64,000 nt of DNA from Candidatus Paraluminiphilus aquimaris (GTDB lineage: Bacteria; Pseudomonadota; Gammaproteobacteria; Pseudomonadales; Halieaceae): the NCBI RefSeq assembly GCF_026230195.1, contig NZ_CP036501.1, forward strand, positions 62,001 to 126,000, written 5' to 3'. The notes beneath the pieces were generated by a model that saw only the letters and a program-made list of their open reading frames with translations, did not search any database and was not told where the DNA came from. The position numbers and the translations under genes were made by a program. This document shows, one piece after another, positions 6,571 through 17,101 of the stretch. Within the stretch, counting starts at the first letter, position 1. Every line of letters begins with the position of its first letter.

Positions 6571-6878
6571 GGTCTTTACACCCTTTTGCTAACCTGCCTA
6601 ATTTATTTTTCTTAAAAATAATGTGCGTGGCTATGGCAATGCACTACCCGTATTTCTAGGGCCGACACCAACACCAGAAATGTACGTTTTGGGCCCTATC
6701 CACCCTTAATATACCGCCGTGTGAAACGTCCCAAAGGCCACTCGGTAACACGTCAGGGGTAGACGTGAATTCATGCGTAAAAAGTACCTGTAAATCGGTC
6801 TGAATTCTATTTCGTTTCCCGCAATCAACGAATACACTCGCCACTTTTATAACAATAAGCTTGCCAGAGGAGACGTTC
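6571..6878. other. Divergent intergenic region, peptidase / FAD-GcvT gene
   Basis: About 308 bases between two divergent starts. A TACACT at 6833-6838 could be a -10 for the plus-strand gene, but no convincing -35 lies 16-18 bases upstream. The Shine-Dalgarno AGAGGAGA is at 6866-6873. No palindromic operator, riboswitch or sigma-54 site was recognised. Confidence 0.4.
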
Positions 6879-9449
6879 ATGGCAGACCTACCAAAACATG
6901 CACGAGTCGTAGTTGTGGGCCAAGGCGGTATCGTTGGCGCATCGGTTGTTCACCACCTGATAGAAGAGGGATGGGACGACATAGTCGGACTCGAAAAGTC
7001 AGCGATTCCAACCGATATTGGTTCAACATCTCACGCCTCTGATTTTTGCTACATGACGTCTCATGACAAGCTCAATGTAGAAATCACCAACTACAGCAGA
7101 GAGTTCTATGCCAAGCGCGGTAACTACATCAAGACGGGCGGTCTTGAAGTAGCGCGTAAAGACGATGACGAGCGCATGTTGGAACTCATTCGCAAGGTAG
7201 GTTCGGGAAAAGCATTTGGTACAAATGCCTACATGATCTCGGCAGCGGAGGCGAAAGAGAAGTTCCCTCTGTTAGAAGAAGATCAAATTCAAGGCGCTAT
7301 GTGGGACCCCGATGCGGGCCTCGTCACGCCTCGGTCGCAGAAGGTGGCCGGCGATTTGGTCGATGAGGCCGTCGCCTCCGGTAAGCTCAAGGCATTTGCC
7401 TACACGCCAGCGACTAAACTCATTGTTGAAGATGGCGTGATCAAGGCAGTAGAAACGCATAAAGGCACCATCACGGCCGATTACGTTGTTCTTTGTGTGG
7501 GCATCTGGGGAAACCTTGTTTCGCAGACGGCGGGTGTAAAACTCCCGTTGATGCCGCTAGAGCACCCGCTCTTATTCTTTGGACCTTGGGATCACCTCGA
7601 AGGCACGGGCAAAGATATCGTCTACCCACTCATGCGCGATCAAGGCAACTCTGCTTACGTTCGCGATACTGGCGATCCCACAACACCTGAAGGTGGATTA
7701 CTCGAGTGGGGCTACTACGAGCCCTTTGACCCGCGGCTAGTAGACCCAACGGATATTGCGGAGCCCGGAGAGGCGCGACTTTCACCCTCAATGCGTGACA
7801 TGACGCTTGACCAGGTAATGGAGGCGTTTGAGCGCGCAATTGAGCTCACTCCTGTTCTTGGAGAATTGGGATGGGAAGAGCGTCGGTCTTTCAATGGCCT
7901 TTTGTCCATTACACCCGATAGCAGCTCCATCATTGGCGAATCAACCGAGGTGAAAAATCTCTGGTTGTGCGAAGCCGTTTGGGTAAAAGAAGGTCCGGGC
8001 GCCGGAAAGTTACTTGCAGAATGGATGACACACGGGCGTACCAAGCAAGATATCCATAGTGTGGATTCTGCACGTCACTACCCGATACAAAAAGGTGATG
8101 ACTACGTCCGCAGCCGCTGCTACGAGTCAGCACAGAAGATCTACACTCCTGCGGTTCATCCTCGCGAGCCTTTTGCTACCTCACGAGGCATGCGCGTAAG
8201 CCCGTTCTATGAGCGCGAAGTTGCCTTAGGTGGATACTTTATGGAGGTTGCCGGGTGGGAACGTGCTCACGGTTATGCCGCCAACGAGGCAACACTGCTC
8301 GAAAAATACAGAGATCAAGTGCCGGTTCGTGAAGCAGAATGGGACAACCGCCACTTCTGGGAGGTCTCGAACGCCGAGCAGCTTGCTATGAGCGATAGCG
8401 TTGGCATGATCAATCTGTCGCACTTTGCCATCTTCGATGTTGAAGGCTCGGATGCCGAAGCACTTATGGAGTATTTGTCGGTAGCTAAAGTGGGGGCCGA
8501 TACGGCTATTGGAAAAGGTGTTTACACCCACTTCCTTGATCATGAGGGGGGTATTCGCTCCGACCTCACTGTCATCCGACTGACAGAGGATTGCTTCCGC
8601 GTCGTCTGCGGTGGCGATACAGGTCATCGCGACTACATCTGGATGCGTGACATGAGTGACCGGAAAGGTTTCCCGAACGTCACGTTCCATGACCGCAGCG
8701 AAGACCTTGCAACATTGGGTCTTTGGGGACCCGACGCGCGGACCACGCTCGCCAAGCTCATGGATGACCCCGATAGCATTTCCAATGAGGCCTTCCCTTT
8801 CGCGACTACCAAGGAGATTACAGTCTGCGGTGTGAAGGTTTGGGCATTCCGAATCAGCTATGTTGGTGAGCAGGGTTGGGAGCTCTATTTCCCCTTCTCG
8901 GATGGCTTGGCCATTTGGGACGCGCTCTTTGACCTCGGTGTAACGCCTGTGGGTATCGAGACCTATGCAAACAGTCGACGGCTGGAAAAGAGCCTTAGAC
9001 TGCAAAATGCCGACCTCGAAACCGAGTACAACCTCTACGAGGCAGGACTTGCCCGTCCCAAAGTAAAAGCGGCGGACTTCCACGGCAAAGAAGCATACGT
9101 TCAACAACGCGAACTCGAGCAGCAGGCAGCTTACCTCTGCACCTTGGAGCTTGGGGACACAACCGACAGTAATGGCGTTGTTCGCTACCCAGTGGGCAAC
9201 TGGCCAATCCTCGACGTCGAGTCGAAAGAGGTGATCATTGACTCCCACGGTCGTCGCTCCTACACCACGAGCATGGCCTTTGGCCCGAGCTTGGGCGTCA
9301 ACATCGCGATGGGTTATCTACCGGCCGACAAAGCTGTCGAGGGTGACACCGTTCTCATTGAGTACTTTGGTGACCAGTACGAAGCGAAGATAATGAAAGT
9401 CGGTTACGGCGCCTTATTGGACCCTACAAACGAGCGGCCAAAAAGCTAG
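6879..9449 (+). CDS. FAD-dependent oxidoreductase-GcvT fusion, dimethylglycine/sarcosine dehydrogenase-like
   Basis: Family members oxidise an N-methyl group of dimethylglycine or sarcosine and pass the one-carbon unit to tetrahydrofolate. Residues 1-430 form a DAO-type FAD domain: Rossmann motif VVVVGQGGIVGAS near 10-22, and GSTSHASDF with His52 at the position that covalently holds FAD in this family. From about 430 there is a FAO_M/GcvT aminomethyltransferase region (GYFMEVAGWERAHGYA; MINLSHFAIFDVEGSDAEALMEYL; AFRISYVGEQGWELYFP). Total 856 residues matches mammalian DMGDH (about 860). An upstream in-frame TTG at 6861 is less likely than this ATG, which has AGAGGAGA in front. Convergent with the corrinoid methyltransferase operon, which suggests sequential demethylation of betaine. 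The exact substrate is inference. Confidence 0.85.
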   Translation: MADLPKHARVVVVGQGGIVGASVVHHLIEEGWDDIVGLEKSAIPTDIGSTSHASDFCYMTSHDKLNVEITNYSREFYAKRGNYIKTGGLEVARKDDDERMLELIRKVGSGKAFGTNAYMISAAEAKEKFPLLEEDQIQGAMWDPDAGLVTPRSQKVAGDLVDEAVASGKLKAFAYTPATKLIVEDGVIKAVETHKGTITADYVVLCVGIWGNLVSQTAGVKLPLMPLEHPLLFFGPWDHLEGTGKDIVYPLMRDQGNSAYVRDTGDPTTPEGGLLEWGYYEPFDPRLVDPTDIAEPGEARLSPSMRDMTLDQVMEAFERAIELTPVLGELGWEERRSFNGLLSITPDSSSIIGESTEVKNLWLCEAVWVKEGPGAGKLLAEWMTHGRTKQDIHSVDSARHYPIQKGDDYVRSRCYESAQKIYTPAVHPREPFATSRGMRVSPFYEREVALGGYFMEVAGWERAHGYAANEATLLEKYRDQVPVREAEWDNRHFWEVSNAEQLAMSDSVGMINLSHFAIFDVEGSDAEALMEYLSVAKVGADTAIGKGVYTHFLDHEGGIRSDLTVIRLTEDCFRVVCGGDTGHRDYIWMRDMSDRKGFPNVTFHDRSEDLATLGLWGPDARTTLAKLMDDPDSISNEAFPFATTKEITVCGVKVWAFRISYVGEQGWELYFPFSDGLAIWDALFDLGVTPVGIETYANSRRLEKSLRLQNADLETEYNLYEAGLARPKVKAADFHGKEAYVQQRELEQQAAYLCTLELGDTTDSNGVVRYPVGNWPILDVESKEVIIDSHGRRSYTTSMAFGPSLGVNIAMGYLPADKAVEGDTVLIEYFGDQYEAKIMKVGYGALLDPTNERPKS

Positions 9450-9511: not shown

Positions 9512-11533
9512 TTAACCACGACGCCGACGTCTTCGACTCTCCGTCTGCGGTGCAGCTTTCGGTTGCGGACGCTCTAACACCGAGAACAAATTGTCGAAAG
9601 GATCCATCTTGTGTGGAAACGCCATAGCAGCGACAAAGTAGTCCTGAAAATCCGTTTCAGTGGCCGTTTCAATGCGCTCTGCCTTATTGACCGTTCGCTG
9701 AATACCCCCACGTGCGTCGTGATCTAACAAGGCTATGCGAGCACCGACACCGGCTGCATTGCCCGCAGACGACACATGATCAAGCGAACAGTCAGGAATC
9801 AATCCGAGCACCATCGCATGCTCGACGCTGATATGACTCCCGAAGGCGCCAGCAAGACGGATACGATCGACCTCAGACACACCCATTTTGTCCATGAGCA
9901 ACTTTATTCCGGCGTAGAGCGCAGCTTTTGCCAACTGGATCTGGCGAACGTCATTTTGGGTAATAACGATATCGCGTTGCGACGCATCCTCAGCAAAGTG
10001 CAACACATAAGACCACGTTCGACCGTGAGCTCTGACACGCGTCGTCCGCTCGGCAAGTGCACCGTCAACAATACCGTCCTCTGAGATAATGCCGGCGAGG
10101 AACATCTCTGCGATTACTTCGATAATTCCGGAGCCGCAAATACCGGTGATACTGAGCTCCTTCGTTGCCTCACCGAAATGGCTATCGGTCGACCAAAGCT
10201 CAGAGCCGATCACCCTAAACTTGGGCTCTAGGGTTGACCGGTCGATTCTCACGCGCTCGATTGCGCCCGCGGTAGCTCGCTGCCCCGCACTTATTTCCCC
10301 GCCCTCAAAGGCCGGCCCTGTGGGGCTTGAGCAAACCAAAAGACGATCTTTATTGCCGAGAACGATTTCTGCATTTGTGCCCACGTCCACAATCAAGCTC
10401 ATTGCATCATCCGTATCCGGACTCTCTGCAAGGATCAGGCCTGCCGTATCCGCGCCAACGTGGCCCGCAATGCACGGCAAGACGAACAATCTCGCTTGAT
10501 TGTGTGTATCGAGTCCCAAATCGCGGGCTCTTAGCGTCACAGCCTCATCGACCGTGAGCGCAAACGGGGCACCCCCTAGGTTGATTGGATTAATACCCAA
10601 AACCAAGTGATGCATGATGGGGTTGGCCACCAAGGAGATTTCAAGAATGTTATCGGTTGTCTCACCCAGCTGATCAGTTAGCTCAATAAACAGCTTGCTC
10701 AGCGCGGACTGAATCGCCGAACTCATTGCATCAGCACCCTCGGGGTGCATCATGATGTAACTAACTCGGCTCATGAGGTCTTCACCAAAGGGGATCTGAG
10801 GGTTCATGACGCTCGCGGACGACAAGACATCACCCGTAGTGAGGTCGCAGAGGTGCGCTGCAACCGTCGTCGAGCCCACATCGACTGCTACGCCTCTTGG
10901 CGACTCAAATAATCCCGACCAAATTCCTATAATTCTTCGCGACTCAAAAACAGCGACTGTCACGCCTCGATCGCCTGAGGCGAGTGCTGTCTGAAGCCTG
11001 ATAAGCTCTGACGTCTCTATGGTTAGATCCGCAAGTCCCCAGTCAGCTTTGAGTGCCGCCAACAAAAGTTTCGATTCCCCGCGTGCGTCGTCTAGCGTCG
11101 ACTCTGGCAGCGTTACAAAATAAAGCCTTGTTGCGGTGTTTAGCTGGATGTCACGATGTTCAGCGTCTTTTCGAATAATTTGTCGATGAACCTGACTCTC
11201 AGGTGGTACATCGATGATCACATCATCAAGCAGCTCAGCATGGCAGCTCAGACGCCGACCTTCAGGCAGCGGACCTTTACGTTCATTGAATTTTATTTCA
11301 GTGGCAACTGGCGCAGAGAGGTGCTCCGGTTTGGAGACCATCTCATGTTTTTGGAATGTTCCCGTCATGCAGGCAATCTGACAACGCCCACAGAGACCAC
11401 GCCCACCACAGACGGAATCGATATCAACGCCTAACGTTCGCGCAGCCTCTAGCAATCGAGTGTGCTTAGGGAACTCACCGCGCTTGCCCGAGGGTAAAAA
11501 AAGAACTTTGACCTGTTCGACCGACACGCCCAC
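9512..11533 (-). CDS. RACo-like reductive activator of corrinoid protein ([2Fe-2S] plus ASKHA/DUF4445)
   Basis: Proteins of this family use ATP to drive reduction of accidentally oxidised cob(II)alamin back to active cob(I)alamin on corrinoid proteins. Residues 1-100 are a plant/adrenodoxin-type ferredoxin with ligands in SVCGGRGLCGRCQ (C-x5-C-x2-C) and a later Cys in GRRLSCHAEL. The remainder is a DUF4445 ASKHA ATPase core with AVDVGSTTVAAHLCDL, SLIVDVGTNAEIVLG and ITGICGSGIIEVIAEM. 673 residues; the layout matches RACo rather than RamA, which has C-terminal 4Fe-4S clusters. The protein ends in an Arg tract (SRRRRRRG). Last gene of the operon, 3 bases after the methyl-THF methyltransferase gene, which fixes its likely partner as the corrinoid protein at 13493. 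Confidence 0.88.
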   Translation of the reverse strand: MGVSVEQVKVLFLPSGKRGEFPKHTRLLEAARTLGVDIDSVCGGRGLCGRCQIACMTGTFQKHEMVSKPEHLSAPVATEIKFNERKGPLPEGRRLSCHAELLDDVIIDVPPESQVHRQIIRKDAEHRDIQLNTATRLYFVTLPESTLDDARGESKLLLAALKADWGLADLTIETSELIRLQTALASGDRGVTVAVFESRRIIGIWSGLFESPRGVAVDVGSTTVAAHLCDLTTGDVLSSASVMNPQIPFGEDLMSRVSYIMMHPEGADAMSSAIQSALSKLFIELTDQLGETTDNILEISLVANPIMHHLVLGINPINLGGAPFALTVDEAVTLRARDLGLDTHNQARLFVLPCIAGHVGADTAGLILAESPDTDDAMSLIVDVGTNAEIVLGNKDRLLVCSSPTGPAFEGGEISAGQRATAGAIERVRIDRSTLEPKFRVIGSELWSTDSHFGEATKELSITGICGSGIIEVIAEMFLAGIISEDGIVDGALAERTTRVRAHGRTWSYVLHFAEDASQRDIVITQNDVRQIQLAKAALYAGIKLLMDKMGVSEVDRIRLAGAFGSHISVEHAMVLGLIPDCSLDHVSSAGNAAGVGARIALLDHDARGGIQRTVNKAERIETATETDFQDYFVAAMAFPHKMDPFDNLFSVLERPQPKAAPQTESRRRRRRG

Positions 11534-11536
11534 TCG

Positions 11537-12433
11537 TTAGCCTCGTCGACGACCTGCGCGGCCGCGACGTCCACCTGCACCCTCGGGTGCGGGCTCGCGA
11601 TACGCCCTGATCCAATTCGCACAGTCAGGATCGTGTCCCATCATGACATCACCCCCTCGCACCGCCTGCATAACCTCGGCGTGAAGTGGACTGGTAATAG
11701 CAGACGTCATACCTGCACCCATTGCCATGGTGAGAAAGGCCGCATTGACGCCATTTCTATTGGGCAGCCCGAAACTAACATTCGAGGCCCCGCAAGTGGT
11801 GTTCACCTTCAGCTCTGTTCGGAGCCGACGGACAAGCTCCATTACCTGAACCCCCGCCTGATTAATTGCACCAATAGGCATTACGAGCGGATCAACCACG
11901 ACGTCTTCATGCGAAATGCCATAATCGGCCGCACGTTCAACAATCTTCTTTGCGACTTTAAAACGTTCGTTAGGATCCTCAGAAATACCCGTTTCATCAT
12001 TTGAGATAGCCACGACCGCTGCACCGTACTTCGCGACGAGCGGAAGAACGCGCTCGAGGACTTCGTCTTCACCGGTAACCGAATTGACCAAGGCTTTACC
12101 CTGATAGACTGACAGTCCTGACTCTAGGGCTTCCACGATGGATGAATCGATACTCAATGGCACATCGGTCACTGACTGGACGAGCTGAATCGCTTCGGCG
12201 AGGATACGTGGCTCATCAGCGAGCGGAATTCCTGCATTGACGTCGAGCATGTGCGCACCCGCAGCAACCTGCGCAAGCGCATCCGCTTCCACACGACTGT
12301 AGTCGCCGTTTTTCATCTCCTCGGCGAGAATTTTCCGCCCCGTGGGATTAATACGTTCACCAATAACGACGAAACGTTGATCAAAACCGATGCGGACTTC
12401 TTTCGTGGCCGAGCTAATAATAGTGGTTGTCAT
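11537..12433 (-). CDS. Methyltetrahydrofolate:corrinoid methyltransferase (MtgA/DHPS-fold)
   Basis: This TIM-barrel pterin-binding enzyme moves a methyl group between a corrinoid protein and tetrahydrofolate. The sequence shows the pterin-binding signature FVVIGERINPTGRKILAEE, AGAHMLDVNAGIPLADEP, LSIDSSIVEALESGL and a C-terminal CGASNVSFGLPNRNGVNAAFL, all typical of MtgA/AcsE/MtvA-like members and distinct from folP at 20072. 298 residues, with about 16 extra C-terminal residues rich in Arg and Gly (EGAGGRRGRAGRRRG). Same operon as the MttB homologue and corrinoid protein; a 140-base gap precedes it. Expected to form methyl-THF from methyl-corrinoid. Confidence 0.9.
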   Translation of the reverse strand: MTTTIISSATKEVRIGFDQRFVVIGERINPTGRKILAEEMKNGDYSRVEADALAQVAAGAHMLDVNAGIPLADEPRILAEAIQLVQSVTDVPLSIDSSIVEALESGLSVYQGKALVNSVTGEDEVLERVLPLVAKYGAAVVAISNDETGISEDPNERFKVAKKIVERAADYGISHEDVVVDPLVMPIGAINQAGVQVMELVRRLRTELKVNTTCGASNVSFGLPNRNGVNAAFLTMAMGAGMTSAITSPLHAEVMQAVRGGDVMMGHDPDCANWIRAYREPAPEGAGGRRGRAGRRRG

Positions 12434-12573
12434 GAGTGTCTCCGGTGCACTTATCGCGTGTGGGTGCGCACCTATTATTGTGTATTTTTCAGTAATCGAA
12501 TATGTACCGTTCGACCGAATACCGAGGCGTTTTTGCCGAGCGTTTTTTAACGCCTGACAGCTTCTGATGCAAG
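12434..12573. other. Gap inside the corrinoid operon
   Basis: The only long gap (140 bases) in the otherwise tight operon. It contains a palindrome GGTGCGCACC (12463-12472) and a long-looped inverted pair GGCGTT/AACGCC without a T-run on the transcribed strand. It could hold an internal promoter or processing site; neither can be shown. No B12-box of a cobalamin riboswitch was seen. Confidence 0.35.
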
Positions 12574-12879
12574 CTAATTTGCTTCATCAAATCCTTTGTT
12601 TTTGACCCAGGTCTCGAGCATTGCATCGGTCACCTGAGCCTCGATTTCTTTGCCGATTGCCATAGCCAGCGCCTGAGCACTCTCATCCGACTCTATCGAC
12701 GTCGTGTGACGACGCCATTCGTCCAAATACGCGTCGCTACCGCCTTTGCCAGCTCGCATTGCTGCGCGATCAATCGCCGCTTGAAACCGATGCTCAAGGA
12801 GGTACTTCCCGCGCTCTCGGCCCCGTTTAATCAGAATTTGCGAGGGTATGTCCCGCCAAAAAACATCGATTCGCTGCAC
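12574..12879 (-). CDS. Small 'virulence factor' domain protein (unknown function)
   Basis: A 101-residue protein starting MQRIDVFWRDIPSQILIKRG, which I recognise as the small family labelled 'virulence factor' (PF13769 type). It has no assigned biochemistry. It is polar and basic in the first half (GRERGKYLLEHRFQAAIDRAAMRAG), with no signal peptide or membrane segment, and ends KNKGFDEAN. The gene lies 2 bases after the DUF1638 gene and within the corrinoid methyltransferase operon, so a role in assembly or handling of the corrinoid protein is a reasonable guess. The family name should not be read as evidence for pathogenicity. Confidence 0.75.
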   Translation of the reverse strand: MQRIDVFWRDIPSQILIKRGRERGKYLLEHRFQAAIDRAAMRAGKGGSDAYLDEWRRHTTSIESDESAQALAMAIGKEIEAQVTDAMLETWVKNKGFDEAN

Positions 12880-12881
12880 CG

Positions 12882-13487
12882 CTAACCCCCTTGTGAGACA
12901 GTAATAACCTGCGCCTCTAAGCTCTCGCCTAGCAAACCATATCCGGTATCGATTATCTCAAGCGGAAGTCCGAGCCGAGTCGCCGCCAATCTGGCTGCGT
13001 CGCGCAATTTAGCGTCAACGGTTTGGGCGAGATAAACCACTTTGCGGTAATGACCAAAAAGCATCGCTTCGATCTCTGGATGTTGATCAAGTTTCATATC
13101 GTCAATAACCAATCGATTAAAATGGCGCACTAGAAAATCAGTCAGATAAAAGGTTCCGGGCTCAGACTCTGCCAGCACATTAAAGACATCACTCGTGGCA
13201 AAAAACTCATAGCAATGAGCGCCGGGTAGCCGGTGTGCACCGAAGCGCTCGGCCACACGGTCAATGCCACCGCCCGAACCACAGTCAGCGTAGGCGATGA
13301 CAATTTTTTCGTAATCGTTGTGAAGTGTTAGGAGCACCCGCTCTAATTCACCAGCGATACGCTCAGGCCGATTGTGCAGGGCAGCGTCGAGGCACTGAAC
13401 ATCGACCTGCGACCAGTTATTGGCCTTTTTAAGCGCCGTAATCTCGGCCGCGAGTGCACCGCAACCAATAATTAAGACGCGCGACAC
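12882..13487 (-). CDS. DUF1638 protein
   Basis: 201 residues matching the DUF1638 family: N-terminal SRVLIIGCGALAAEITALKKAN, a central ADCGSGGGIDRVAERFGAHRLPGAHCYEFFA, and DFLVRHFNRLVIDDMKLDQHPEIEAMLFGHYRKVVYLAQT. Function is unknown in the family. The conserved Cys/His content (GCG, ADCG, GAHCYEF) would suit metal or cofactor binding. It sits 5 bases after the corrinoid protein gene and 2 bases before the small 'virulence factor' gene, a strong sign of joint function with corrinoid methyl transfer. No signal or membrane segment. Confidence 0.85.
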   Translation of the reverse strand: MSRVLIIGCGALAAEITALKKANNWSQVDVQCLDAALHNRPERIAGELERVLLTLHNDYEKIVIAYADCGSGGGIDRVAERFGAHRLPGAHCYEFFATSDVFNVLAESEPGTFYLTDFLVRHFNRLVIDDMKLDQHPEIEAMLFGHYRKVVYLAQTVDAKLRDAARLAATRLGLPLEIIDTGYGLLGESLEAQVITVSQGG

Positions 13488-13492
13488 GCCAT

Positions 13493-14188
13493 TTAGCCTT
13501 GTGCCACGCGACGTTCTTCGACGAGGCGCACAGCTGACACTGCAGCCTCTGCCGCATCACGGCAGTAGGCATCGGCGCCGACAGCCTCGCCGAACTCTTC
13601 GTTCAACGGTGCTCCACCCACCATCACGATATAGTCATCGCGGATACCTTGCTCTTTCAGTGCGTCAATGACGACTTTCATATACGGCATCGTGGTTGTC
13701 AGTAGCGCAGACATGCCCAGAATATCTGGCTTATGGCGCTCTAGCGCAGCCACATAATCTTCCACGGAGTTGTTAATGCCGATGTCATACACCTCAAAGC
13801 CCGCGCCTTCCATCATCATCGCAACCAGGTTCTTTCCAATATCATGAATATCACCCTTCACCGTTCCGATAACCATAGTGCCCACAGGCTTAGCACCTGT
13901 CTCGGCCAGCAACGGACGCAAAATCGACATGCCGCCTTTCATCGCGTTCGCTGCGAGTAATACCTCGGGCACGAACAAAATACCGTCGCGAAAATCGATG
14001 CCAACAATGGTCATGCCATCAACTAGCGCCTTACTCAGAACCTGTTCAGCTGACCAGCCACGCTCGAGTAAAATGTGGGTACCTTCTTCTATCTCCTCTT
14101 TCAGACCATCGTATAAATCGTCATGCATTTGTACGATGAGGTCGTCGTCAGATAGTTCGGAAAGGATGATGTCTTCTTCGTCGGACAT
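13493..14188 (-). CDS. Corrinoid (B12-binding) methyl-carrier protein, MttC/MtgC-like
   Basis: Carries the methyl group on cobalt between the substrate methyltransferase and the methyl-THF methyltransferase. Residues about 15-95 form the B12-binding-2 cap domain (LYDGLKEEIEEGTHILLERGWSAEQVL). Residues 100-225 form the B12-binding Rossmann domain with GTVKGDIHDIGKNLVAMMMEGAGF, which contains the DxHxxG base-off/His-on motif, and MSALLTTTMPYMK and IVMVGGAPLNEEF. 231 residues, slightly longer than MtgC (about 215) because of an acidic N-terminus (MSDEEDIILSELSDDD). Lies between the MttB-like and DUF1638 genes. Confidence 0.93.
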   Translation of the reverse strand: MSDEEDIILSELSDDDLIVQMHDDLYDGLKEEIEEGTHILLERGWSAEQVLSKALVDGMTIVGIDFRDGILFVPEVLLAANAMKGGMSILRPLLAETGAKPVGTMVIGTVKGDIHDIGKNLVAMMMEGAGFEVYDIGINNSVEDYVAALERHKPDILGMSALLTTTMPYMKVVIDALKEQGIRDDYIVMVGGAPLNEEFGEAVGADAYCRDAAEAAVSAVRLVEERRVAQG

Positions 14189-14212
14189 TGGTTTTGTCTC
14201 CCCTAAATTCGC

Positions 14213-15754
14213 TTAATAATCTCTATCAGCAAAGGATGCTTTTTCACGCGCCATAAAGTCCAAAAGCGCCTCGTCAATCGCTGAATCCAAAGCGGGCGCT
14301 TCGTAGTCCGCCAACATCTTCTTCCAAATACCGTTTGCTCGCTGGGCTGCATCAAGGCTGCCCTCAGCCGACCACTGCTCAAAGCTGTTGTTGTCGGCAA
14401 TAGTCGATCGATAAAACGCAGACTCGAAATTACTGAGCGTGTGCGCTGAACCTAAGAAATGCTTTCCCGGGCCCACTTCGTGGAACGCATCCATTGCTTG
14501 GGCGTTTTCCGACAGGTCCATGCCCTCCAGCAATACGGCGATCATGCTTGCCTGGTCACAATCCATTACGAACTTCTCATAACCCACAGCAAGACCACCT
14601 TCGAGCCAACCCGCTGTATGCAGCATAAAGTTAACACCCGCGAGTGCCGCCGTTTGCAACGTATTAGCTGCCTCGTAGGCCGCCTGAGCGTCGGGAAGCT
14701 TTGATCCACAGAGCCCGCCGCCACTCCGATAAGGCACACCTAGCCGACGTGCAAGTGCCGCCGTCGCGTAAATAACTTGACTGGGCTCTGGTGTACCAAA
14801 TGTTGGCGCACCGGTGGCCATGGACACAGCAGCCGCAAAGGTCCCAAAAACAACCGGACAACCTGGGCGAATTAACTGAGTCAGCGCGATACCTGCCATC
14901 GCCTCGGCCAAGATCTGTGTACAGGTTCCCGCCACCGTTACCGGCGACATCGCCCCTGCCAAAATGAAGGGGGAGACAACGCAAGATTGATTATTGCGAG
15001 CGTATACCTTCAAGGATCCGAGCATGGTGCCGTCAAACACCATAGGCGAGTTGACATTAATCAGACTGGTAAGAACACAGTTTTGGTCGACAAACTCGTC
15101 ACCAAAAACCAGCTTTGCCATATCCACCGTGTCTTGCGCGCGTCGGTAATGGGTGACCGAACCCATGAGTGGTTTGTCACTGTATTTAAAATGGCTGTAA
15201 ACCATATCGTAGTGACGCTTGTTGACTGGCAAGTCAACGGGCTCACACACCGTGCCACCCGAGTGATGAATGCCCGGCGCCATATAAGCGAGTTTCACGA
15301 AATTACGAAAATCTTCGATGGTTGAATAACGACGACCCTTGTCTAAGTCATGAGCGAATGGCGAGCCATAGGCTGGAACGAGAACCGTATTTTTGCCACC
15401 AATGACAACACTGCGTTCAGGATTACGCGCGTGCTGTATATATTCAGAGGGCGCAGAAGCCTGAATGATCTGACGACACATCCCCCTTGGAAAACGGACA
15501 CGCGTTCCATCGACGCTCGCACCTGCTACCTGAAATAGCTCGAGCACCTCGGGATCATCAAGAAAGTCTATGCCTACCTCTTCCAAGAGCTTATCCGCAT
15601 TGTCCTCAATGAGCTGCAGGCCTTCTTCGCTGAGAATTTCAACGTAAGGGATCTTTCTCTGGATATACGGAGCTGCCGCTTTTACTGAGCTGGCTCTCGC
15701 CTCCCGCCGACCCGCACGACCTCCGCCTTTTCGTCTTCCCGCTCTCTCAGACAT
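14213..15754 (-). CDS. Trimethylamine methyltransferase family protein (MttB homologue lacking pyrrolysine)
   Basis: MttB-superfamily TIM-barrel enzymes demethylate a quaternary or tertiary amine and methylate the partner corrinoid protein. Family hallmarks are present from about residue 30: IPYVEILSEEGLQLIEDNADKLLEEVGIDF, VLVPAYGSPFAHDLDKGRRYST, and FGTPEPSQVIYATAALARRLGVPYRSGG. The 513-codon frame has no internal stop, so it is a non-pyrrolysine member, the class that includes glycine betaine, proline betaine, carnitine and butyrobetaine methyltransferases. The first 24 residues are an Arg/Gly-rich extension (MSERAGRRKGGGRAGRREAR). First gene of the operon. Glycine betaine is the favoured substrate because of the dimethylglycine-dehydrogenase-like neighbour; not proven. 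Confidence 0.9.
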   Translation of the reverse strand: MSERAGRRKGGGRAGRREARASSVKAAAPYIQRKIPYVEILSEEGLQLIEDNADKLLEEVGIDFLDDPEVLELFQVAGASVDGTRVRFPRGMCRQIIQASAPSEYIQHARNPERSVVIGGKNTVLVPAYGSPFAHDLDKGRRYSTIEDFRNFVKLAYMAPGIHHSGGTVCEPVDLPVNKRHYDMVYSHFKYSDKPLMGSVTHYRRAQDTVDMAKLVFGDEFVDQNCVLTSLINVNSPMVFDGTMLGSLKVYARNNQSCVVSPFILAGAMSPVTVAGTCTQILAEAMAGIALTQLIRPGCPVVFGTFAAAVSMATGAPTFGTPEPSQVIYATAALARRLGVPYRSGGGLCGSKLPDAQAAYEAANTLQTAALAGVNFMLHTAGWLEGGLAVGYEKFVMDCDQASMIAVLLEGMDLSENAQAMDAFHEVGPGKHFLGSAHTLSNFESAFYRSTIADNNSFEQWSAEGSLDAAQRANGIWKKMLADYEAPALDSAIDEALLDFMAREKASFADRDY

Positions 15755-15991: not shown

Positions 15992-17101
15992 ATGAACGAA
16001 GTTGAGGGTGATCAGTTGGTTGCTAAACGCATTGCTGTCGTGGGCGCAGGCGTAAACGGAACGTCCATTGCAACCGCGTGCGCAAAACGGGGCTGCGAGG
16101 TTGTGCTTTTCGATGCGGGCAGTCCCTTTGCAGAAACAAGCAGTAAATCCTCTCGCATGCTTCACGGCGGTATTCGTTACCTAGAGCAAGGTCATATTAA
16201 GCTTGTGAGAGAAGCCCTAAAAGAGCGCGAGGAATGGCAGCGTATTGCGCCAGATGCAACGCGCGTCGAGAGATTCTTCTTTCCAATTTACAATGACTCT
16301 CCGCGAGGTCGTACCACGTTATTCGCAGGGGCGCTGTTATATCAATGGCTAGCAGGACGGTACTCCCTAGGTCGAAGTCAGCTTCACAGCAAAAACGAGC
16401 TATTGGAGGCCTTCCCGACCCTGAGTCCAGAAAATCTAAAAGGCGGTATTAGTTATTGCGACCTCGTAATGGATGATCAAGTGATGGCCGAGCATTTACT
16501 GGCAGAGGCTCAATCATCAGGTGTCACTCTTCATTCCCACAGCCGCGTGTCTCATTTAACAACTGAAGGATCCCTCAGGGTAAATGACGACACCTTGCAA
16601 TTTGATCGAGTCATCAACGCCGCGGGACCCTGGGCGAGTGAAATTTTGATGGAATCGAATATTGCTTCGAAATTCACGATTAGCCACGTGAGAGGCTCTC
16701 ACCTTTTGCTCGATCTAACGCTGCCTCATGCCTTGGTTTTTCAAGTGCCTGACGATGGACGCATCGTTTTTTGCATTCCTCAGTCGAAAAGCAAAGTGCT
16801 CCTAGGCACGACCGAATGTGCCCATGACCTCAAAGACCCCATAAACTGCACTGACGCTGAAACTGACTACCTCCTAGCCATCTTAAATAAACACATTCAA
16901 CCCGCCGTTAGTCGGGAGCACATAACCGCAACGTTATCGGGTGTCCGCCCCATAGCTAAAGCCCGAAATGCGCAGCTTCAGAACATGAGCAGGGCAAGCC
17001 GAGACTCGGAAATAGAAGTGGTTAACTCATTGATCAACGTCTTTGGAGGTAAGTGGACCTCCGCGAGACACCTCGGTCGTAAAGTGGCCTCTGTCATTTG
17101 A
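15992..17101 (+). CDS. GlpD-like FAD-dependent oxidoreductase, short form
   Basis: Similar to the FAD domain of aerobic glycerol-3-phosphate dehydrogenase: Rossmann motif IAVVGAGVNGTSIATACAKRG, the GlpD signature SSKSSRMLHGGIRYLEQGHIKLVREAL, SGVRPIAKARNAQ, and terminal INVFGGKWTSARHLGRKVA. At 369 residues it lacks the C-terminal helical cap of GlpD (about 500 residues). Either it is a shorter amine/hydroxy-acid oxidase-like relative, or the domain is dispensable. The ATG at 15992 has no ribosome site. A TTG at 16016 with GAGGG about 7 bases before it would give MVAKRIAVVGAG and could be the true start. Divergent from the MttB-like gene; the 237-base spacer shows no firm promoter. Confidence 0.8.
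   Translation: MNEVEGDQLVAKRIAVVGAGVNGTSIATACAKRGCEVVLFDAGSPFAETSSKSSRMLHGGIRYLEQGHIKLVREALKEREEWQRIAPDATRVERFFFPIYNDSPRGRTTLFAGALLYQWLAGRYSLGRSQLHSKNELLEAFPTLSPENLKGGISYCDLVMDDQVMAEHLLAEAQSSGVTLHSHSRVSHLTTEGSLRVNDDTLQFDRVINAAGPWASEILMESNIASKFTISHVRGSHLLLDLTLPHALVFQVPDDGRIVFCIPQSKSKVLLGTTECAHDLKDPINCTDAETDYLLAILNKHIQPAVSREHITATLSGVRPIAKARNAQLQNMSRASRDSEIEVVNSLINVFGGKWTSARHLGRKVASVI

What the first reader, a model, noticed from the sequence alone, without database searches (positions are those of the whole stretch)
9512..15754. Six-gene corrinoid methyl-transfer operon in an apparently aerobic gammaproteobacterium
Seen: MttB-like enzyme, corrinoid protein with DxHxxG motif, DUF1638, small PF13769-type protein, methyl-THF:corrinoid methyltransferase and a RACo-like activator, all co-directional and mostly 2-25 bases apart. 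Known: non-pyrrolysine MttB relatives demethylate glycine betaine, proline betaine or carnitine, mainly in anaerobes. Inference: this is a complete oxygen-exposed demethylation route feeding methyl-THF, with two uncharacterised components.
Basis: partly seen in the sequence, partly recalled or inferred. Interest (0 to 1): 0.8.

Follow-up and report, generated by a model that had tools for sequence, protein, structure and literature searches.

The report
Split B12 methyltransferase with arginine tags
Six genes here encode a known kind of vitamin-B12 enzyme that probably strips methyl groups from an ocean osmolyte and helps make methionine, and its separate working parts share short arginine-rich tags that may hold them together.

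Summary
The operon is real at the stated coordinates: mttB, corrinoid gene, DUF1638, PF13769, methyl-THF methyltransferase, RACo-type activase. The system is already described: in the aerobe Ruegeria pomeroyi, mtgC and mtgD mutants lose both glycine betaine use and methionine synthesis (PMC12478193; see also PMC5764234). This host, a Luminiphilus by its relatives, shows no MetE and no classical MetH, has one MttB and a distant mtgE; dual use is likely.

What I found in neither paper is a shared tag. Four unrelated folds that must each meet the corrinoid protein carry an Arg/Gly-rich end: MttB N-terminus (129 of 137), MtgD C-terminus (115 of 115), activase C-terminus (90 of 91), MtgE C-terminus (42 of 42). 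Low-identity or fused relatives rarely do (0 of 12; 1 of 11), nor other ORFs nearby (9 of 806). The hub MtgC is acidic with a conserved acidic leader. I propose electrostatic docking; untested. A gene fusion ties PF13769 to the activase. Sister operons carry an MTHFR pair that is missing here.

The parts
14213..15754 (-). mtgB/mttB, MTTB family methyltransferase, 513 aa, only PF06253 copy in the genome
15689..15754 (-). Arg/Gly-rich N-terminal head of MtgB (first 22 codons, MSERAGRRKGGGRAGRREARAS)
   Evidence: head found in 129 of 137 MttB sequences
13493..14188 (-). mtgC, corrinoid protein, 231 aa
14123..14188 (-). acidic leader of MtgC (first 22 codons)
12882..13487 (-). DUF1638 protein, 201 aa; methionine phenotype of the homologue in P. 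inhibens (PMC5764234)
12574..12879 (-). PF13769 protein ('virulence factor' by name only), 101 aa; fused to the activase in a Terrarubrum plasmid
12434..12573 (.). 140-base gap at the place where sister operons hold an MTHFR_C gene and metF2
11537..12433 (-). mtgD, methyl-THF:corrinoid methyltransferase, 298 aa
11540..11581 (-). Arg/Gly-rich C-terminal tail of MtgD (last 14 codons before the stop, GAGGRRGRAGRRRG)
   Evidence: tail in 115 of 115 MtgD
9512..11533 (-). RACo/RamA-type corrinoid activase, 673 aa
9515..9541 (-). Arg-rich C-terminal tail of the activase (last 9 codons before the stop, ESRRRRRRG)
   Evidence: tail in 90 of 91 RACo
6861..9449 (+). convergent DAO + GCV_T protein, dimethylglycine/sarcosine dehydrogenase-like, likely next demethylation step (inferred)

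Best explanation
This is an Mtg-type split corrinoid methyltransferase. MtgB moves a methyl group from glycine betaine to Co(I) of MtgC; MtgD passes it to THF, or works in reverse; MtgE, encoded elsewhere, takes it to homocysteine; the RACo-type activase, helped by PF13769 and DUF1638, re-reduces oxidised cobalt. One MtgC has to serve every partner. MtgB, MtgD, MtgE and the activase each carry a short Arg/Gly-rich end, and MtgC a conserved acidic leader; I propose that these charges dock the partners to the hub reversibly, doing what covalent linkers do in MetH. Shown here: the genes, the tags, the acidic leader, no MetE and no classical MetH found. Shown by others in relatives: mtgC and mtgD are needed for both GBT use and methionine synthesis. 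Inferred: GBT as substrate in this strain (about 0.75), dual use (about 0.8), docking of the tags on MtgC (about 0.5).
For: Family matches. No Meth_synt_2 match; PF02310 only in MtgC and one 729-aa frame; PF02574 only in two standalone frames. MtgE candidate L001 over the cut-off of NF005718 (439.5 of 338 bits). MtgB in a clade of 26, support 1.0. Azoarcus KH32C: clade member beside betA, betB and a choline transporter gene, its mtg operon among glycine betaine ABC genes. DMGDH-like neighbour. Tags: one search counts; background. MtgC leader mean net charge -8.5 over 22 positions. One standalone MtgC in each of 22 genomes against 0 to 7 MttB. PF13769-activase fusion.
Against: No binding or activity was measured. 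MtgC is acidic in its body too (mean -14.8 over about 209 positions), so the leader need not be the receptor. One activase lacked the tag by the rule and 8 MttB heads had only 3 Arg in 10. A distant system (L056) has basic mixed tails on two parts but none on its methyltransferase. The corrinoid chain 2i2x_B also has about 35 residues before its match, so a long N-terminus is not unique to tagged systems. G018, at 93% completeness, shows neither MetH nor MtgE. Substrate rests on clade and neighbours only.
Confidence: 0.7

Rival explanations
1. The tags are a real shared feature but bind something other than MtgC (RNA, nucleoid, membrane lipid or DUF1638) and co-localise the enzymes there.
For: Tails are Arg/Gly rich and nearly free of Lys (MtgD mean 6.7 R, 5.0 G, 0.2 K in 20 residues), a composition known from RNA-binding tails (recalled). 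Any anionic partner would fit.
Against: The tag follows partnership with MtgC across four folds: 0 of 12 low-identity PF02574 rows and 1 of 11 low-identity MtgD-like rows have it. MtgC is the most acidic of the eight proteins compared.
Confidence: 0.33
2. MtgB here uses another methyl donor (carnitine, proline betaine, TMA, DMSP or an unknown one).
For: PF06253 paralogues are many in Alphaproteobacteria (up to 7 per genome), and other members act on other amines (PMC12478193, part 4).
Against: Single copy in this genome, core clade, glycine betaine and choline genes around the Azoarcus relatives, DMGDH-like neighbour.
Confidence: 0.22
3. In this strain the route is mainly anabolic: GBT methyl goes to methionine rather than to methyl-THF oxidation.
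For: No MTHFR pair in the operon and no canonical MetF among the matches in G000. Genome G158 has MtgC, MtgD and MtgE but no MttB match.
Against: A weak MTHFR-like gene is present (46 bits) and a 41% identical relative sits in the metF2 slot in L106, so methyl-THF oxidation may be intact.
Confidence: 0.3
4. The tails are a by-product of high GC content or relaxed ends and have no function.
For: They are short and vary in sequence; only 4 rows come from loci below 45% GC, so GC was tested weakly.
Against: Other ORFs of the same loci rarely have them (9 of 806 against 76 of 77 MtgD); correlation of Arg number with GC is -0.23, -0.15 and 0.16; kept in MttB paralogues down to 24% identity.
Confidence: 0.04

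Closest known systems
MtgBCD(E) with RamA and DUF1638, Ruegeria pomeroyi DSS-3 (PMC12478193)
   Same: Same protein families and proposed reactions; aerobic marine host; methionine and GBT use share MtgC and MtgD.
   Different: Here mtgB, mtgC, DUF1638, PF13769, mtgD and the activase form one operon; the term searches of that paper found no mention of PF13769 or of arginine tails.
Split methionine synthase of Phaeobacter inhibens (PMC5764234)
   Same: Standalone PF02574, PF00809 and B12-binding proteins with RamA-like and DUF1638 proteins.
   Different: No operon of all parts described there; passages only were read; no mention of arginine-rich or acidic parts.
MtgABC of anaerobes such as Desulfitobacterium hafniense (as cited in PMC12478193)
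   Same: MTTB enzyme, corrinoid protein and methyl-THF methyltransferase.
   Different: The solved GBT methyltransferase chain 9yce starts at the core, aligned from its residue 3 to query 35 (organism recalled); methyl-THF methyltransferase chains 1f6y and 2yci end at query 279-280 of 298.
Classical MetH
   Same: Same homocysteine, folate and cobalamin modules.
   Different: Fused; no Arg tag in the fused or two-part relatives examined (0 of 12 PF02574 rows); not found in this genome.
RACo of the CO dehydrogenase/acetyl-CoA synthase system (3zyy)
   Same: Same domain order.
   Different: 3zyy ends 9 residues after the match to query 642 of 673, so it lacks most of the tail region.

Membership tests
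Aerobic Mtg system (MtgBCDE) | MTTB-family methyltransferase without pyrrolysine codon | tested here: met
   (761 bits); no internal stop
Aerobic Mtg system (MtgBCDE) | standalone corrinoid protein with B12-binding and cap domains | tested here: met
Aerobic Mtg system (MtgBCDE) | standalone pterin-binding methyltransferase MtgD | tested here: met
Aerobic Mtg system (MtgBCDE) | standalone homocysteine module MtgE in the genome | tested here: met
Aerobic Mtg system (MtgBCDE) | RamA/RACo-type activase and DUF1638 present | tested here: met
Aerobic Mtg system (MtgBCDE) | usual absence of classical MetH and MetE in the genome | tested here: met
   four of twelve near-complete same-genus genomes do show MetH or a MetH-like piece
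Aerobic Mtg system (MtgBCDE) | glycine betaine demethylation and methionine synthesis in the cell | not testable with these tools
   needs mutants or assays
Aerobic Mtg system (MtgBCDE) | orthology to the R. pomeroyi MtgB proteins | tested here: inconclusive
   the Ruegeria pomeroyi sequences were not in hand; clade holds other Pseudomonadota
Pyrrolysine MttB | in-frame amber codon | tested here: not met
Classical MetH | one long polypeptide with all modules | tested here: not met
RACo/RamA-type activase | Fer2, linker, middle and ASKHA C-terminal domains | tested here: met
   below the cut-off of the narrower AcsV model (397 of 800 bits)

The most novel reading that the evidence does not exclude
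A general electrostatic docking code: in Pseudomonadota the enzymes that use the shared corrinoid hub MtgC, whatever their fold, carry an Arg/Gly-rich terminal tag read by the acidic hub, so new methyl donors join by gaining a tag and the modules form a reversible assembly, possibly a condensate, in place of MetH's covalent linkers.
Probability: 0.45. Interest if true: 0.85.

Novelty: new variant of a known kind. Interest (0 to 1): 0.66.

Why it matters
The gene set belongs to a system published in 2025, so the operon is not itself a discovery. The shared tags would explain how one B12 protein serves up to seven MttB paralogues, a folate enzyme, a methionine module and an activase without fusing them. 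They give a sequence mark for finding unknown clients of MtgC and a simple deletion test in established marine laboratory strains. PF13769, named a virulence factor, gets a likely role as an accessory of corrinoid activation.

Tried and rejected

Counting rules. One search dropped rows cut at the 3' end, below 50, 44 and 44% identity (MtgD, RACo, MtgE), frames of 800 aa or more, matches ending before three quarters of the query, and duplicates; rule: at least 4 Arg in a 10-residue window of the last 35. Misses: the activase of L102; 8 MttB heads with 3 Arg. Also meeting the rule: one low-identity MtgD-like row (L056), DUF1638 1 of 99, PF13769 1 of 105 (the activase fusion) and MtgC 3 of 100, of which by reading L017 and L030 are masked or broken frames. 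The two control sets share seven fused proteins. One search uses a crude gene caller (1329 ORFs, 101 loci, some of them the same contig fetched twice; identical proteins removed) and another rule (5 Arg in 10 of the last 25). At 4 Arg the background is 39 of 806, and for N-terminal heads 69 of 806 against 54 of 57 MttB. Related genomes are not independent samples.

Literature. Searches list 20 of 82, 3 of 3, 20 of 62, 15 of 64, 10 of 14 and 15 of 22 papers; among those listed I saw none whose title or abstract ties Arg-rich tails or PF13769 to this system. PMC12478193: parts 1-4 of 6 of the text read and terms searched in the whole main text. PMC5764234: passages and term searches. All other papers: listing only. 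Supplements were not available.
Full report
Observation. Pfam and NCBIfam support the names. Gaps are 24, 5, 2, 140 and 3 bases. A convergent DAO + GCV_T protein, like dimethylglycine or sarcosine dehydrogenases, lies at 6861-9449.

Host. The window lies in a 2.72-Mb single-contig genome, 98.7% complete. I therefore take the host as a Luminiphilus; its aerobic marine life is recalled, not tested.

Known system. PMC12478193 (parts 1-4 of 6 read) shows that R. pomeroyi mutants in mtgC or mtgD need methionine and cannot grow on glycine betaine even with methionine. MtgB, RamA and DUF1638 enter that model through proteomics and homology. It reports mtgC in marine Alpha-, Delta- and Gammaproteobacteria. 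PMC5764234 (passages) describes the split methionine synthase of P. inhibens, whose RamA-like and DUF1638 mutants are rescued by methionine. The window operon belongs to this system.

Methionine in this genome. PF02574 matches twice, in standalone frames of 340 and 308 aa. There is no Meth_synt_2 match. PF02310 matches only MtgC and one 729-aa frame. MTTB matches once. The 336-aa PF02574 protein (L001) passes the NCBIfam 'betaine--homocysteine S-methyltransferase' cut-off (439.5 of 338 bits), a name that PMC12478193 reinterprets as MtgE for such homologues. So methionine is most likely made by MtgC, MtgD and MtgE. Of 12 same-genus genomes at least 90% complete, 12 have MtgC (G036 in part), 10 have MtgE (G036 in part; not G010 or G018), 3 have a MetH-length frame (G006, G010, G035) and G016 a shorter MetH-like frame.

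MTHFR. Of 34 loci compared, 15 carry an MTHFR gene (metF2) between PF13769 and mtgD, as the Azoarcus plasmid does, among them HTCC2080, HTCC2207 and HTCC2148; the window and its closest relatives (L037-L046, L058) do not. I read this as loss, leaving the 140-base gap. In the 11 such genus genomes covered, canonical MetF (277-290 bits) is in G006, G010, G016 and G035, the four with MetH or a piece; metF2 type alone in G004 and G025; only a weak MTHFR-like protein (39-48 bits) in G000, G008, G017, G018 and G028. In this genome the weak one (L006) lies beside a DmdA-like gene (328 bits, below the cut-off of 410), and a 41% identical relative fills the metF2 slot in L106. I infer that it stands in for MetF2; untested.

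The tags. MtgD ends GAGGRRGRAGRRRG, the activase ESRRRRRRG, MtgE GGGRRSRRRQG, and MtgB begins MSERAGRRKGGGRAGRREARAS. Matching ends were read in related loci. Non-redundant counts: MtgD 115 of 115, activase 90 of 91, MtgE 42 of 42, MtgB heads 129 of 137 with at least 4 Arg in 10 residues and 137 of 137 with at least 3. In 101 loci, 5 Arg in 10 of the last 25 residues is met by MtgD 76 of 77, activase 68 of 72 and other ORFs 9 of 806. MttB paralogues down to 24% identity keep the head. Low-identity PF02574 rows (MetH, two-part MetH pieces, other enzymes) have none, 0 of 12; low-identity MtgD-like rows 1 of 11. G158, without an MttB match, still tags MtgD, MtgE and the activase. A haloarchaeal plasmid operon with corrinoid protein, activase, DUF1638 and MtrH shows no such ends.

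Outside comparison. The solved GBT methyltransferase chain 9yce aligns from its residue 3 to query 35; methyl-THF methyltransferase chains 1f6y and 2yci end at query 279-280 of 298; RACo 3zyy ends 9 residues after query 642 of 673. Chain 4yyc (Sinorhizobium by recall) shows the Arg head in its alignment. Corrinoid chains 1y80, 7xcn and 4jgi align from their residues 6-9 to query 16-23, so lack a long leader, but 2i2x_B has about 35 residues before its match. Deposited chains can be trimmed constructs.

The hub. Each of 22 genomes has one standalone MtgC and 0 to 7 MttB matches. MtgC's first 22 positions average net charge -8.5, its body is acidic too (-14.8 over about 209 positions), and its aligned core is the most acidic of the eight proteins compared; the tags average +4 to +6. 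The simplest reading is reversible charge docking of each partner on MtgC. This is inference; RNA or another anionic partner is not excluded.

PF13769 and DUF1638. Where genes are scattered, DUF1638 stays near mtgC and PF13769 near mtgD. DUF1638 with a complete 3' end is in 17 of 22 mtgC loci (L297-L318) and PF13769 in 5 of them. PF13769 is in 14 of 30 mtgD loci with 1.5-kb flanks, the window's own included, and in 13 of 16 wider ones. A Terrarubrum plasmid fuses PF13769 to the N-terminus of the activase, which keeps an Arg tail. PF13769 therefore probably assists activation. DUF1638 has invariant C9, H38, C69, H91 and C92 in 57 aligned sequences, which suggests a metal or redox site. Fold searches were not informative.

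Substrate. The window MtgB falls in a clade of 26 of 81 sequences with support 1.0. It includes Azoarcus KH32C, whose gene lies within 10 kb of betA, betB and a choline transporter gene and whose mtg operon lies among glycine betaine ABC genes. With the DMGDH-like neighbour this favours glycine betaine.

Verdict. As a system it is known. The shared tags are the surprise: the term searches found them in neither key paper, and no title or abstract in the capped listings names them.

Noticed in passing
L006:1273-3365 (own genome, C1 near 1,087 kb): Weak MTHFR-like gene directly beside a DmdA-like GCV_T gene; the only PF02219 match in this genome.
   Followed up: partly
L106 (Woeseiaceae AM-375-N10): A relative of the weak MTHFR-like protein (41% identity) occupies the metF2 slot between PF13769 and mtgD.
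   Followed up: partly
L330:9245-11527 (Terrarubrum flagellatum plasmid): 760-aa fusion of PF13769 with the whole RACo-type activase, ending in an Arg-rich tail.
   Followed up: yes
L056:6085-11445 (G053, same order): Distant corrinoid operon (34-39% identity) with mixed Lys/Arg/Glu tails on the MtgD-like protein and activase, an acidic corrinoid N-terminus, and a 458-aa methyltransferase without a head.
   Followed up: partly
L328:7893-12599 (Halomicrococcus gelatinilyticus plasmid): Haloarchaeal operon of corrinoid protein, activase, DUF1638 and MtrH next to FAD oxidoreductases, without Arg tags.
   Followed up: partly
G158 (L173, L208, L318, L338): Genome with tagged MtgD, MtgE and activase and an MtgC but no MttB match: apparently a pure split methionine synthase.
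   Followed up: partly
window 15992-17101 (+): 369-aa FAD oxidoreductase resembling glycerol-3-phosphate dehydrogenase but below cut-offs and shorter than those models, divergent from mttB.
   Followed up: no
plasmid hits H29-H37 (Sinorhizobium): MttB matches covering only 69% of the query in S. meliloti and S. kummerowiae plasmids; possibly shortened genes.
   Followed up: no
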